64,000 nucleotides of DNA from Pseudophaeomoniella oleicola (lineage: Eukaryota; Ascomycota; Eurotiomycetes; Phaeomoniellales; Phaeomoniellaceae). The stretch spans positions 31,491 to 95,490 of the forward strand of contig QWDQ01000078.1 in assembly GCA_003868215.1 (NCBI GenBank). Reading direction: 5' to 3'. Positions 41,888 through 47,973 of the stretch are shown here, in pieces. Both the position numbers and the translations under genes were made by a program. Numbering within the stretch: the stretch's first letter is position 1; the number at the start of each line of letters is the position of its first letter. The notes under the pieces are model-generated. The model did not search any database. It saw nothing but the letters and a program-made list of their open reading frames with translations, and was not told where the DNA came from.

Positions 41888-44213
41888 TCATCGTCTTCCA
41901 TGATGTCCATGACCGTGGCCATGACCGTGCCATCCATGATGACCTCCTCCACCTCCGCCTCTGCCCTGTCTATACCCACCACCACCTCTGCCGCCGCCTC
42001 GATCTCGAGATGCGTCTCTACCTGCGCCTGTGGGGCCTAGAGGAGCTTGGGGTGGTGCGTTGGTGTTTCCGGTGCCGCTGGGGCCGATGGGGTCGAATCT
42101 TGATGGAGGCCCGCCGCCGCCACTGATGGGAGCAGAGGTCGAGTCGGTGCCGTTTCGAGTCGAGTCGCGGTCGCGGTCACGGTCTCGATTGTACTGATGT
42201 CTGTTGTTGTTGTCTCGGTTTGGAGGACCAGCGGGGGTAGGGCCGGTAGGGTCGAGATCTCTACGCTGTTGCTGTTGGCGCTGTGGTTGTTGAGATGTTG
42301 AGGATGGATGGTTCGGTTGGGCTGAGGCCTCATCGTCGTTTTCAACGAAGTATTCTTTTACGATATTCCGTTCTTCTCGTTCTCGTTCTGGGTTCAACAT
42401 GAACCTTACAGTACCTTCGCGGCCTCTTTCGCCTACGCGGGCGCCTGACACAGTGCGTGCCGTACCATTGACCACGGGTTGAGGGACCATCGATGAGATG
42501 GCAGTTGTGGCAGATGCGTCGGATGGGATGGGAACTGCCGTTGGACTCGTCGGAAGAGCATTAGCGGTAGCTGACCTGCGAGGTGGAAGGGGTGCGGAAT
42601 TTGCGCCGGTTGCAGGCCCCGTAGGTGGCATAGCACCTCTACGGTCCGTACCATTGACCGTGCCGTTGGCGCGAGGTGAGGTTGGGGATGTGGGTCGCCC
42701 TACGGGTAATGGGGGCTGTTGGTTTTGTATTTTGGCTCTCCATTCCGTATAGCGAGGAAGATCTTTGCTTTCAACTTCCTGGTTCAGTGGAATCCTGATT
42801 TCTAGGAAAGTGTCTATTGCGAAGTCTGGGCCAATGGTGGTGGAAGTTCGATTGTGAGTGTATAGTTCTAGTAAATCTAGAAGAGTTTCTGCGGGGAAGA
42901 TCAGTTCGGTGTTCGATGAGCGGCACAATCAACCAAGTCCATACAGGGCACCAAATAGCGAGAATTCACAAAAAGAGATGATGTACGTTGCATAATGAAA
43001 AGGACTCCTTCGCTCATTTGAAAAGAGGTCCGAATGAATGATTCTCGCAAAGGGAAAAAAAAGGGCAAAAAAAGAAACGACATACAACAGACGGGATTCG
43101 CTGGTGGTCACCCACCCAACTACTAACCGCCCGACCTGTGGCTTAAGTACGGCTGAGCGGACGGGAAGCCCTGTATTCCACAGTCTATGGTCGTATGTGA
43201 AAGAGAACAATCCAAAGCAGTATATAATAGACAAGGAAACACTCCGCACTTCCAAAAAACTCGGATCGAAGCAAGAATTTGTTGATGGGCAACGAAAACA
43301 GGGATTCATGAGCACTCACCCATTACCATTGAACGTGACACTTTCCACGTCCGATAATCTTCGCCAGACAAGATGATTTCGTTTGGCTCGTTATGTAACC
43401 TGCCTGCGAGCTCAAGACATGCAAATGCCATCGTTGCAGTAGTCTGTTTTAGCGGTGCAAAGGTTCGGTAGAGGTCGAGCGAGATGCCATAAGCTGTTTT
43501 GATGACAGGCGAAGTCTTGTGATAGCCATACTTCTTTGCTAATTTGATGAGCAGCACTTGTGGATGTCGATTCCGAAAATCAAAGCTAGAGGCTTCGAGC
43601 ATTAACCGTTCGAGACCAATGATGGTGCGGGAGTGATGTTCAAAGACCTATGTTGTTCAGTTGCAGCACACACATTAGCAGTCACAAATCAATCACTCAC
43701 AGCATCGTCGGGTGAAAGCTGATCTGATGGAGCTGTTTTCAGGTTATATGCGGCACACAGGATATCGCGTGACTTCTTCAAAGTATCTTCGATCTTGCAT
43801 GCAGTGAATAGTGCTGCTGCCGCTGCGTCCTGTAGTTAAAGTCAGCTTCCTGTCCCCAAGCACAGCGTGGACCACAAACCACATAAGCAAATTCGACATC
43901 TGGATGTACAAGACGAAATTTGTGATAGTAGACTGCAGCTGTATCGAACGTCCGTACTGGCCTGACATGGTCAGCCTCGAATCAGGAACCCCATCACGGT
44001 AGACTCGTACAATTTCAACGCTCTGCGGACATTATCGATCCAAGTGATACCCAGAAGACGGATATTCTCTTCTTTTGCTGGACTCACAGTCGTGTTCTGT
44101 AAGCATTTCTGGATCGTTTGTTCGAAAATGTATGGCTTAGCGACCGAGATATAGGACGGATGCGGACCAACACGGTTTCGATCACCTTCGCTCTCAATCT
44201 TCATTGGTGCCAT
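41888..44213 (-). CDS. ctk2: Cyclin subunit of the RNA polymerase II CTD kinase (CTK2-like)
   Basis: Predicted nuclear cyclin partner of the kinase that phosphorylates the polymerase II C-terminal domain; 580 residues. Exons on minus: 44213-44011, 43961-43880, 43829-43701, 43647-43320 and 42888-41888. Cyclin-fold segments are rebuilt by splicing: RNRVGPHPSYI, NIRLLGITWIDNVRRALKLP, VRTFDTAAVYYHKFRLVHP, then DAAAAALFTACKIEDTLKKS, and a second box ending METLLDLLELYTHNRT. The last 250 residues are disordered and rich in Pro, Gln, Arg and Asp. They end in an RGG-like and Gly/His-rich tail, which is unusual for the family. Intron 4 (42889-43319) is 431 nt, against about 50-70 nt for the others. 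It contains a same-strand 5S rRNA gene. Start taken at MAPMK. Confidence 0.9.
43055..43073 (-). terminator. RNA polymerase III oligo-T terminators of the 5S gene
   Basis: On the minus strand, just after the 5S 3' end, a seven-T run (43073-43067) is followed a few bases later by an eight-T run (43062-43055). Runs of four or more T are the standard pol III stop signal. Confidence 0.85.
43080..43198 (-). rRNA. 5S ribosomal RNA gene
   Basis: About 119 nt. The 5' end ACATACGACCATAG and 3' end GTTGTATGT match fungal 5S and pair over nine positions (helix I, one G-T wobble). GACTGTGG pairs with a downstream CCACAGGTC (helix II). The universal stretches CCCGTCCGCTC and GGGTGGGTGACCACC are present. 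The sequence also includes the AGTAGTTGGG and AGCGAATCCC segments conserved in ascomycete 5S. The gene sits inside intron 4 of the CTK2-like gene, in the same orientation. Dispersed single 5S copies outside the rDNA are normal in Pezizomycotina. The pairing, upstream TATA and terminators suggest an active copy rather than a pseudogene. Confidence 0.95.
43221..43228 (-). promoter_or_regulatory. TATA-like element upstream of the 5S gene
   Basis: ATTATATA on the minus strand, 23-30 nt upstream of the 5S 5' end. Dispersed 5S genes of Neurospora are known to need an upstream TATA element at about this distance, so the position fits a functional pol III promoter. Confidence 0.65.
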
Positions 44214-44721
44214 CTCGATCTGTGCAAGATGACTGCCATCAAGCGGAGATAACCAGTTTAGGAAAGTAGGAGGAAATGCAAGTCGTCTGCTGTATCCTCG
44301 AGCCTGGCAGACAATGTCAGATGCTGATTGGTTGAAGCTCGAAGAAGGAGAACTTACCCAAGGCGAATCCATGCCTAAAGACCTACTTCTCATCACGTGA
44401 TGTGCATCGCCTCAAATGCGACACGATAAACATTTTGAAGAATATTTACTTCCGGGTAAGTTTAATGGCAGTATTTCCTTGAGCTGCATCGCGCGATGCT
44501 ATCTGATTGACAGCTCGAAAAATCTCTGTCAACTTGTTGAGGTTGGATTGCGGCAAGGGAAATACCAGACGCAGGTCAGGACGGCAATGGCACGACCCTT
44601 CATCTCACGCCATATCTCAGGGAAGACTGCTGTTTTTGAACTACACATTTCCATTGCAAATTGTCATATCTTGATCAGAAGCTAAGTATTGATGTAGCTA
44701 AAACAGGTTCCAAAACGTCAT
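44214..44721. other. Intergenic spacer between CTK2 and the ATRIP-like gene
   Basis: Promoter of CTK2 (-) and 3' flank of the ATRIP-like gene (-). The open frame continuing upstream of the chosen CTK2 start lacks conserved sequence. No other gene is seen. Confidence 0.55.
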
Positions 44722-47175
44722 TCACCTCCTACTTTTCTGCGTCGGGAAAACGTCCAATAACGCCTCTGCCTCCTCTGGTGTAATAACCTGCTCGAGCATT
44801 TCATGTGCCATCACACATGTTTCATCATTGATACCTTCCTCCATCAAGGGCCCATCCCTGAACGCCAATCGCGTCAAAACAACCGCATGCTTTGGTACAC
44901 CACCGTTGACGGCCTGCAACTTCTGATGAAGATTAATATTGTTTCCGTGAAGCTCCAAGAGGCGATAGAATAACCGGACGCCCTCATTGACTAGGATCGA
45001 GTGAAGCTCTCGCGTCGGTTCTGGCGTGTACAAAGCCGCTACTTCATCGTAGATTGACCGAACCAATCGACCAATTGCTGCCGGGTGTTGAGCTAATAGC
45101 CAGCTTCCGTGAGTGTCCATGTTTTCCTGGGGATGGAAAGTTGACAATGCCAGCGTTGATAATAGCGACATGACCTCAATACGAAATTCCGAGATCTGCT
45201 CAGGTGTATATGGTGGTTCCCCTTCATCTGCACGTGGTGTCTCCCATAGCAGACATGTCAGCCGCTCAACAACATGTCTCTCAATAGTAGTTTGCTCCTC
45301 AGCCAACGCCGAGATCTTCCCGAAAGTCTTCGGTCGAATGCTTGTGGACAGAAGATTCAAGTTGAGAGTCATGTCGGATATTGGCTGACAAGAATTCAGC
45401 ATGATAAGGACGAACTCAATGTCCATGGTTCGCCAGAACTGGTCAATGTGGTCATCGTTATGCATGCAAGCATAAGCAATGTCAACAAGCAGCTCGAGGC
45501 ACTCTGTTGCGTTGACCTCGGGATTCAAGCTAGATTTTGGTGTGAATTTGAATTTCCCCTGGCTGCTACGAGAAACTGGAGAATGCTCGAATCGAGGGAC
45601 ACCATTGATCTTACCTGATGCTTGTAGCACTGGAAGCAGGTCAATGATTAGAGATGGAGCAGTTTTAACACTATCAAGTGAGATGATAAACTTGATCACG
45701 TCGACGAAAACAGAGACTGGAGTGTAATATTTCTCTTTAAGTGATTTGGACCACATGGACACGATGATCCTCGCAAATTCCACAGAAAGGTCATCTCCAC
45801 GCAAGAAGGAAGACTCCTCTATGACGATCGTCGAAAATTTGGTCTTAGAGTCCGAGGGGAAGGAGTATCCCGTAAGTACTTCTATTAGAGTCTCTTCCCC
45901 CTCACGAGGATGAAAGTTATAGACCTGTTGGAGGAATCTGAGACCTTCTTCGGGATGCTGCTGTCTCGCTAGCACTGGTTGTACGGTACCCTTTTCATGT
46001 GCGTCATTTTGAGCCCCTTCCACAGTCCCGAAAGCATCCTCGTGGCTCTCTAACACTAGAGGGGCAATAGGGCTGTCGTCTAATTGTTGGCGCTTACGCT
46101 TATTATTCACAGGTGTTGTTTTCTTTGACTTTCTAGCGGATCTGGAAGGAGAGAGCACACGGAGATCTTCATCATCAAAGCCGTCCCGGTGTGGTAATGA
46201 CTTTGTTTTCTTTGGCGTTGATATTGGGCTGTTGGCTGGATCATCCTTTGCTTTTGTGCGCAGATTCTGCTGCAAGCCTTTGACTCTCTTCGATTCTTCT
46301 GTAAGATCCTGCTTGAGGAACTTATTCTCCGTTGCAACGCGCTCGCTTTCCCTTCGCGCAGCCTCGACTTCAGCTCGATGTCTAGCGGCCTCTTCTTCAG
46401 CGGCTTTCTTCAATGTAGCCAGCTGTTTGTCATAGGTCTTTGATGTCTTTTCTTGGTTTGCTCGTATAATAGAGATCTCCCCCCTTTGAGTTTGCACGGC
46501 AGACTTTGCTTCCTGAAGGTCTCTGGTCAACCGATCTCTTTCCTGGAGTAATTGTTGAAGCTGAGAATGTAGTGCTTGAGGTAAATCTCCATTGTCGGTT
46601 GCAAACGCCGAGCTTTCGTGATCTAATAGCATAACATCGTTTTCAACTGTCCCCTGATACCTCTGCCCCGGCTTGTGTGGTTCGGTATGCCGCGCTTCCT
46701 GATGTCGCTGATAAGGTTGGGGAGGTGGACGGTGTCGTGTATGATCATTAGGCCCGTAACGGCGCACTCGATGCAGCTCACGTTGTGACACTTCATCTGC
46801 AACGTTCTGAGCTAGAAAAGAGACATTTTCCTCGGCTGGCGTTGGCAAATTTGCGTCATCGATCAAGTAGGCATCAGAAGAAGAAGGGCGTGTCTGCGCA
46901 TGGGACTGGACAAGATTGCTCTGCGGAACGGCATTCGATGGACGCCGCGCGGCGGCAGCATCATCATCGATCAACGGTGCCGGCGATACACTGACAGGTC
47001 CCTGTTGAATTGCTGCATTTGTTGTAGGGAAAGCATGCCGCTGAAGACCCTGTTGTGCTTGTTGGGTTGACAAGATGGCATTCTGCTCAAGCTCGTACAG
47101 AGTGTTGGCCGGTAGATCTTCAAACCCGTCATCTGAGAAATTGTCATCGTCTCCGATGTCGTCCATGCCATTCAT
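44722..47175 (-). CDS. uvsD: DNA damage checkpoint protein, Rad26/UvsD/ATRIP family
   Basis: Predicted partner of the ATR-type kinase in the DNA damage checkpoint, recruiting it to RPA-coated single-stranded DNA. Intronless, 817 residues from the ATG at 47175; a second in-frame ATG follows three codons later. The acidic N-terminus (MDDIGDDDNFSDDGFEDLP, then TLYELEQNA) matches the conserved RPA-contact region of fungal members. Residues about 210-310 form a long coiled coil (LLQERDRLTRDLQEAK and onward), the expected dimerisation and kinase-binding element. A basic patch (SARKSKKTTP, KRKRQ) follows, likely nuclear localisation. The C-terminal half is helical without named motifs, as in the family. 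The product would act in the nucleus. Confidence 0.85.
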   Translation of the reverse strand: MNGMDDIGDDDNFSDDGFEDLPANTLYELEQNAILSTQQAQQGLQRHAFPTTNAAIQQGPVSVSPAPLIDDDAAAARRPSNAVPQSNLVQSHAQTRPSSSDAYLIDDANLPTPAEENVSFLAQNVADEVSQRELHRVRRYGPNDHTRHRPPPQPYQRHQEARHTEPHKPGQRYQGTVENDVMLLDHESSAFATDNGDLPQALHSQLQQLLQERDRLTRDLQEAKSAVQTQRGEISIIRANQEKTSKTYDKQLATLKKAAEEEAARHRAEVEAARRESERVATENKFLKQDLTEESKRVKGLQQNLRTKAKDDPANSPISTPKKTKSLPHRDGFDDEDLRVLSPSRSARKSKKTTPVNNKRKRQQLDDSPIAPLVLESHEDAFGTVEGAQNDAHEKGTVQPVLARQQHPEEGLRFLQQVYNFHPREGEETLIEVLTGYSFPSDSKTKFSTIVIEESSFLRGDDLSVEFARIIVSMWSKSLKEKYYTPVSVFVDVIKFIISLDSVKTAPSLIIDLLPVLQASGKINGVPRFEHSPVSRSSQGKFKFTPKSSLNPEVNATECLELLVDIAYACMHNDDHIDQFWRTMDIEFVLIMLNSCQPISDMTLNLNLLSTSIRPKTFGKISALAEEQTTIERHVVERLTCLLWETPRADEGEPPYTPEQISEFRIEVMSLLSTLALSTFHPQENMDTHGSWLLAQHPAAIGRLVRSIYDEVAALYTPEPTRELHSILVNEGVRLFYRLLELHGNNINLHQKLQAVNGGVPKHAVVLTRLAFRDGPLMEEGINDETCVMAHEMLEQVITPEEAEALLDVFPTQKSRR

Positions 47176-47973
47176 TGCCAACCTCCATTGGAAGACGGCC
47201 AATACAGCTGCGACAGTCGCGGAGAGTATTCACTGGCGTTTGGTTGTAACGATAGCAAACAAATCAACAGTTTACCATGTTTCGTAGATCCACGCTTCAG
47301 AGCGATCATCAATCAATCCACCTTTTTAACTATTCTCCACTTCTAATCAGACTTGTAGGGGAGGTGTTCACGCCTAAAGGCCCTAGAGGTCACTGAACCC
47401 TTTAACAAGAAGACTCTAAGAAAACAACAATTCCAAAGGCTTTTACCGGCAGGGCGGCGTTAAAACAGGCCGAAACGTCAGCTAAAGCTTTCCCCCAATC
47501 GGACACAATGCCTTGTGTTTGCCCGACCCCCGACTCTTGTTAATTACATACGCAATAATACATCCAACGCACTCTTTTTTTTAAAGATACGGGACGCCCA
47601 GGCGCAACTGACGTAGCTTCATTCGTTGTGGGCACAGCACAATCTTACTCTACCTACATCACGCTTGGAGGTTTCGGCTGTTCCGCTTGTCTACCAATTT
47701 ACTGACCCAAAAACTACAGCTCCTCTTCAGTTTTCGTGTCACCCATCTCACTCCATACAGCAGCATCGAGCCGCTGCTCTTACGTGGCCGGCTGTTCAGG
47801 ATTCTCGCGCTGCTATCCGCTGGTCATTGTGTTCTCTTTCGAAAGGCACTCCGCCTTGGCTAAAGGCTCAGCATCCACTGTGATTTTCACGTGCTATTTT
47901 GCGCGCATTTTCGCCTCATACAAAAGCTGACTTATATTCGCCGTACCCTTACGACTCTACTGGAAAATTCGCA
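47176..47973. other. Bidirectional promoter region
   Basis: 800-base divergent spacer between the ATRIP-like gene (-) and CDP-diacylglycerol synthase (+). ORFs here are shadow frames. It has a short T-run near 47576, and no gene is recognised. Confidence 0.6.

What the first reader, a model, noticed from the sequence alone, without database searches (positions are those of the whole stretch)
42889..43319. A complete 5S rRNA gene nested in the sense orientation inside an intron of the CTD-kinase cyclin gene
Intron 4 of the CTK2-like gene is 431 nt, about eight times the other introns. It contains a full-length 119-nt 5S gene on the same strand, with a TATA-like element at 43221-43228 and pol III oligo-T stops at 43055-43073. 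Helices I and II pair. So a pol III gene lies in the intron of a gene whose product regulates pol II elongation, transcribed in the same direction. Dispersed 5S genes are known in Pezizomycotina; a sense-intronic placement in this host could create polymerase conflict or coupling of splicing with pol III transcription. Any such coupling is inference.
Basis: partly seen in the sequence, partly recalled or inferred. Interest (0 to 1): 0.75.

Follow-up and report, generated by a model that had tools for sequence, protein, structure and literature searches.

The report
Dispersed fungal 5S gene in intron
A complete, normal-looking 5S ribosomal RNA gene sits inside an intron of a fungal cyclin gene, pointing the same way; the placement looks real but is about what scattered 5S genes in moulds would give by chance, and no special coupling is shown.

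Summary
A full-length 5S rRNA gene (43198-43079, minus strand) scores 75.5 bits to RF00001. It lies in a 431-nt intron (43319-42889) of a minus-strand cyclin K/T/Ctk2-type gene, so guest and host share orientation. Splicing is inferred from frame and homology; no RNA data were available.

The copy does not look decayed. 30 of 34 consensus pairs form; the four that do not are equally unpaired in another fungal 5S. It has a TATA-like box near -28 and T-runs downstream, as has that comparator.

With Podospora figures, random placement puts about 2 to 4 of 72 full-length 5S genes in introns, half in sense. In a published reporter, an intronic Pol III unit lowered expression only in antisense, though sense cases of Pol II accumulation are mentioned. 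Best reading: an ordinary 5S gene tolerated in an intron. A new, post-hoc detail: outside the 5S the intron has no internal YAG, while the 5S carries seven possible cryptic acceptors.

The parts
41888..44372 (-). CTK2/cyclin K-like gene (CDS span, six exons: 44372-44358, 44303-44011, 43961-43883 or 43961-43880, 43829-43701, 43647-43320, 42888-41888)
   Evidence: exon joining gives one frame of 614 or 615 aa; Cyclin_N Pfam; cyclin K, T and Ctk2 among PDB sequences
42889..43319 (-). 431-nt intron holding the 5S gene; begins GTGAGTGC, ends CTGATCTTCCCCGCAG; phase 1
   Evidence: frame kept over ...SMVM|ETLLDLLELYTH; cyclin K alignment has no gap at the junction but a two-residue gap about five residues before it and ends 12 residues after it; retention gives an early stop
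43079..43198 (-). 5S rRNA gene, full length
   Evidence: RF00001 75.5 bits, positions 1-120/120
43220..43229 (-). TATA-like element TATTATATAC, -31 to -22 from the 5S start
   Evidence: comparator L005 has TTTAAATA at -30 to -23. An element of the kind searched appears at -34 to -21 in 2.8% of mononucleotide shuffles of the flank (pattern chosen after looking)
43055..43073 (-). two Pol III-type T-runs (T7 at 43073-43067, T8 at 43062-43055)
42900..42904 (-). branch-point-like CTGAT, the only CTRAY in the intron

Best explanation
This is probably one of the dispersed 5S rRNA genes of a filamentous ascomycete (host group inferred, not tested) that came to lie in an intron of a CTD-kinase-type cyclin gene and stayed there. 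Pol III transcribes it from its internal promoter helped by the upstream TATA-like box and stops at the T-runs. Independently, Pol II reads through it and the whole 431-nt intron, 5S included, is spliced out. The two genes share DNA without a dedicated regulatory link. Shown: 5S identity, completeness, orientation, promoter-like and terminator-like context, frame and homology logic of the intron. Inferred: that other copies exist, that Pol III transcribes this copy, that the intron is spliced efficiently, and that there is no coupling.
For: RF00001 full-length match. 30 of 34 consensus pairs form, against 28 of 34 in fungal comparator L005; the four non-standard pairs are the same in both; four pairs differ on both sides and still pair. 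TATA-like element near -28 in the window and L005, T-runs after the gene in the window, L005 and L002. Intron frame and cyclin homology. No YAG in the 309 nt of intron outside the 5S and the terminal CAG; mean 3.2 in dinucleotide shuffles, 1.3% of 5000 have none. Chance expectation of about 2.2 (whole genome) to 3.9 (non-coding DNA) intronic copies of 72 (Podospora passages; arithmetic).
Against: No RNA-seq, Pol III ChIP or related fungal genome was available, and no genome is held for the window. The expectation uses another fungus. The comparators are one full-length copy and one cut at a contig end, both from one MAG. The 5S fold alone is not unusually stable (z -1.06, 27 of 200 shuffles as good); the whole intron folds less well than most shuffles (z +1.73, 99 of 100 as good). 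The YAG and TATA tests were chosen after looking, and AG as such is not depleted in the flanks (8 seen, 10.0 expected).
Confidence: 0.8

Rival explanations
1. The sense-nested 5S unit affects its host: Pol III factors bound in the intron slow Pol II, so 5S activity tunes CTK2 output or splicing.
For: A nested Pol III MIR in Polr3e lowers host expression; the discussion cites an orientation-independent TFIIIB block at a yeast tRNA gene and reports that embedded Pol III loci in human cells, sense as well as antisense, coincide with Pol II accumulation (PMC5358760 section 9).
Against: In the same paper's reporter a sense intronic Pol III unit had no measurable effect (section 6). Nothing in the sequence here points to a link; conservation of the placement is untested.
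Confidence: 0.08
2. The 5S sequence in the pre-mRNA acts as an RNA element: it binds 5S-binding proteins or supplies cryptic 3' splice sites that give unproductive CTK2 transcripts, comparable to the 5S-like exon of plant TFIIIA genes (recalled).
For: The 7 internal YAGs of the intron all lie in the 5S; TTCAC followed by CATAG at the 5S start resembles branch point plus acceptor. Intron retention gives an early stop.
Against: The 5S sequence is explained by 5S function alone. Use of the YAGs is not shown. The plant precedent concerns a gene whose product binds 5S, unlike a cyclin.
Confidence: 0.06
3. A silent 5S pseudogene or RNA-derived insertion without Pol III activity.
For: Intronic location; four of 34 consensus pairs are non-standard.
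Against: Those four are equally non-standard in L005. Full length, two-sided pair changes, TATA-like box and T-runs in place; an RNA-derived copy would not bring an upstream TATA box.
Confidence: 0.06

Closest known systems
Dispersed 5S rRNA genes of filamentous ascomycetes (e.g. Podospora anserina: 87 genes, 72 full-length; PMC2441463, passages)
   Same: single full-length copy without rDNA or tRNA beside it in the window, TATA-like box and T-runs as in comparator L005
   Different: this copy sits inside an intron of a protein gene; the passages read do not say where the Podospora copies lie
Intronic Pol III MIR in mammalian Polr3e (PMC5358760, outline and sections 6 and 9)
   Same: Pol III unit nested in an intron of a Pol II gene
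   Different: MIR is antisense, a SINE with A and B boxes, in a Pol III subunit gene; here sense, 5S type, cyclin gene
Plant TFIIIA genes with a 5S-mimic alternative exon (recalled; only a search listing seen)
   Same: 5S-like sequence inside a Pol II gene
   Different: plant element is exonic and part of an autoregulatory loop (recalled); here the 5S is complete and intronic and the host is a cyclin
tRNA-5S fusions of Yarrowia and Trichomonascus (PMC2911113 and PMC13130702, passages)
   Same: dispersed ascomycete 5S genes in unusual transcriptional company
   Different: fusion is with another Pol III gene; ARAGORN found no tRNA in this window

Membership tests
5S rRNA (RF00001) | score above the Rfam gathering cut-off over the full model | tested here: met
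   75.5 bits against 38, positions 1-120/120
5S rRNA (RF00001) | consensus helices form | tested here: met
   30 of 34 consensus pairs standard; 28 of 34 in L005
5S rRNA (RF00001) | transcribed by Pol III and built into ribosomes | not testable with these tools
   no expression data
Dispersed Pezizomycotina-type 5S gene | upstream TATA-like box near -28 and T-run after the gene | tested here: met
   window and L005 both; that Neurospora 5S genes need the TATA box is recalled, not read
Dispersed Pezizomycotina-type 5S gene | other copies elsewhere in the same genome | not testable with these tools
   no genome is held for the window; one 5S in the window
Dispersed Pezizomycotina-type 5S gene | host is a filamentous ascomycete | not tested
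   inferred from short introns and a fungal-type 5S; no taxonomic comparison was made
CTK2 / cyclin K-type cyclin | cyclin box related to cyclin K, T or Ctk2 | tested here: met
   Cyclin_N 27.1 bits, cut-off 23; cyclin K E 1e-16, 7jv7_B CTD kinase subunit beta E 4.7e-13
CTK2 / cyclin K-type cyclin | orthologue of Ctk2 rather than of a CDK9- or CDK12-type cyclin | tested here: inconclusive
   scores rank cyclin K, then T, with Ctk2 between cyclin T entries; no tree, no fungal orthologue set
Pol III/Pol II interference unit (Polr3e MIR type) | antisense orientation in the intron | tested here: not met
   5S and host are both on the minus strand
Pol III/Pol II interference unit (Polr3e MIR type) | placement conserved among related species | not testable with these tools
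   a CTK2 relative was found in 0 of 3 genomes searched, none of them a proper fungal genome; 0 of 34 candidate stretches in viral contigs confirmed with a 68-aa query

The most novel reading that the evidence does not exclude
A working 5S gene in sense inside the intron of a CTD-kinase cyclin couples ribosomal RNA synthesis to Pol II elongation control: Pol III occupancy or 5S-borne cryptic acceptors set how much full-length cyclin mRNA is made, and the intron flanks have been purged of competing acceptors because of it.
Probability: 0.06. Interest if true: 0.7.

Novelty: new member of a known kind. Interest (0 to 1): 0.27.

Why it matters
It is a clean natural case of a Pol III gene sense-nested in a short fungal intron, useful for asking how Pol II, Pol III and the spliceosome share one stretch of DNA. 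In itself it is about what dispersed 5S genes are expected to give, so it matters mainly as a test case.

Tried and rejected
Other RNA in the rest of the intron: cmscan of 42700-43500 at E up to 5 gave only the 5S. A hairpin with 8-nt arms (42958-42965 / 43041-43048) is no more stable than shuffles over 42950-43050 (z -0.42, 61 of 200 as good). The whole-intron fold is not unusual in the stable direction (z +1.73). A weak 20-nt direct repeat (75%) between 43066-43085 and 42967-42986 was taken as T-rich chance and not followed. A target-site duplication was not tested specifically.

Comparators: the pattern scan of genome contigs gave 5 stretches; 2 of 5 (L005, L002) carry a 5S at gathering level, 3 of 5 do not (L001 and L004 no hit, L003 a T-box only). 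L005 and L002 are contigs of one MAG labelled deltaproteobacterial, which I read as fungal contamination. Four pattern scans of viral contigs gave 0, 0, 1 and 3 loci; 0 of these 4 loci has a 5S at gathering level. The RF00001 search of that MAG's genome gave two matches: L005's and a bacterial one beside LSU rRNA (L006), the latter set aside.

Papers: ten searches. In their listings I saw no title reporting a 5S gene in a fungal intron; this covers one open-licence library, listed results only, and is not proof of absence. Papers seen: PMC5358760 (outline with abstract, sections 6 and 9); PMC2441463, PMC2911113, PMC13130702, PMC10085805, PMC5148876, PMC11346459, PMC10781861 (passages only).

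Full report
What is there. The window carries one 5S rRNA gene at gathering level, minus strand 43198-43079, matching RF00001 from model position 1 to 120 at 75.5 bits, E 3.5e-14. A 22-nt conserved piece of it occurs once in the window with up to 3 mismatches allowed and in 0 of 100 shuffles. ARAGORN found no tRNA gene in the window.

Host gene. A minus-strand gene runs from 44372 to 41888 in six exons. Its product carries Cyclin_N (27.1 bits, cut-off 23). Of 22 distinct PDB sequences matched at E 0.001, the best are cyclin K (E 1e-16), then cyclin T1, with yeast CTD kinase subunit beta, 7jv7_B, at E 4.7e-13. 'CTK2-like' is a fair name, but assignment to Ctk2 rather than cyclin K or T rests on the fungal setting. 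The introns are 54, 49, 53, 53 and 431 nt; the third is 50 nt with an alternative donor that also keeps the frame, and that 615-aa version was used in the searches. The long intron, 43319-42889, begins GTGAGT, ends CTGATCTTCCCCGCAG and is phase 1. Removing it joins ...SMVM to ETLLDLLELYTH in frame. The cyclin K alignments shown have no gap at the junction itself, but a two-residue gap about five residues before it, and they end 12 residues after it, so homology support for the acceptor side is short. If the intron is kept, the fifth codon from the junction is a stop (MGECS*). The intron is number 5 if the 15-nt first exon is coding, number 4 if translation starts at the exon-2 ATG. Splicing is inferred; no RNA data were available.

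Is the 5S copy intact? Of 34 consensus pairs, 30 form in the window copy, including 9 of 9 in helix I and 7 of 7 in helix II, and 28 form in L005, a fungal-type 5S on a contig of a MAG labelled deltaproteobacterial. The four non-standard pairs of the window copy have the same letters in L005, so they look like shared departures from the model rather than decay. The two copies differ at 20 columns; at four pairs both sides differ and pairing is kept. This shows constraint on the 5S lineage since the two diverged, not on this copy alone, because the host's other 5S genes are unknown. On the 5' side lies TATTATATAC at -31 to -22; L005 has TTTAAATA at -30 to -23. An element of the kind searched appears in that stretch in 2.8% of mononucleotide shuffles of the flank; the pattern was chosen after looking. 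On the 3' side T7 and T8 runs begin 7 and 18 nt past 43080; L005 and L002 also have long T-runs just after the gene. That a TATA box near -28 is needed for Neurospora 5S transcription is recalled, not read here.

A detail not in the finding. Outside the 5S, the intron (309 nt, terminal CAG excluded) has no YAG trinucleotide; the mean is 6.5 in mononucleotide and 3.2 in dinucleotide shuffles, with none in 0.12% and 1.3% of 5000 shuffles. AG as such is not depleted there (8 seen, 10.0 expected in mononucleotide shuffles, 29% of shuffles as low), and YAG read on the other strand occurs six times. The 119-nt 5S has seven YAGs. Sliding the same two-piece template along both strands of the window gives zero YAGs at 5 of 12714 overlapping placements, some of which may be the intron itself. 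The test was chosen after looking, so I take it as moderate support that the whole stretch is a real intron from which competing acceptors were lost except where the 5S forbids change.

How surprising is the placement? Podospora anserina has 72 full-length dispersed 5S genes, 10545 coding genes, 1.27 introns per gene and 79.32 nt mean intron size (PMC2441463, passages). Introns are then about 3.0% of the genome, so random placement gives about 2.2 intronic copies of 72, or 3.9 if only non-coding DNA is open, half in sense (arithmetic). The window's fungus may differ; Phialocephala subalpina is reported with 20 5S loci (PMC5148876, passage), for which the expectation would be lower. One sense-intronic 5S is therefore unremarkable in frequency.

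Does it do something to its host? The closest experiment read is the Polr3e MIR (PMC5358760): in a reporter intron the antisense Pol III unit cut expression by 20-30%, while the sense unit had no measurable effect (section 6). The discussion favours head-to-head collision for the antisense case; it also cites an orientation-independent TFIIIB block at a yeast tRNA gene, and reports that the handful of human Pol III loci embedded in Pol II-occupied genes, sense as well as antisense, coincide with Pol II accumulation (section 9). The sense placement here thus argues against collision but does not exclude a bound-factor roadblock.

Limits. No genome is held for the window, and the host group is inferred. 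A CTK2 relative was found in 0 of 3 genomes searched, which shows little since none is a proper fungal genome. The comparator set is one full and one truncated 5S from a single MAG. Conservation of the placement, expression and splicing remain untested.

Noticed in passing
44722-47202 (-): Upstream neighbour in the same direction is a Rad26-like (ATRIP-type, name recalled) gene: Rad26-like helical repeats at 247.8 bits.
   Followed up: no
L005 4011-4130 and L002 945-1038: Fungal-type 5S genes on contigs NYXK01000105 and NYXK01000238 of a MAG labelled Deltaproteobacteria: apparently fungal contigs in a bacterial bin; the second contig ends inside the 5S.
   Followed up: partly
41888-42400 (-): The cyclin's C-terminal part is long and of low complexity, with RD-repeat, glycine-rich and GH-repeat stretches.
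   Followed up: no
42958-43048: Hairpin with 8-nt perfect arms in the intron downstream of the 5S; not more stable than shuffles.
   Followed up: yes
43201-43185 (-): TTCAC followed by CATAG across the 5S start looks like a branch point plus 3' splice site and could be a cryptic acceptor.
   Followed up: no
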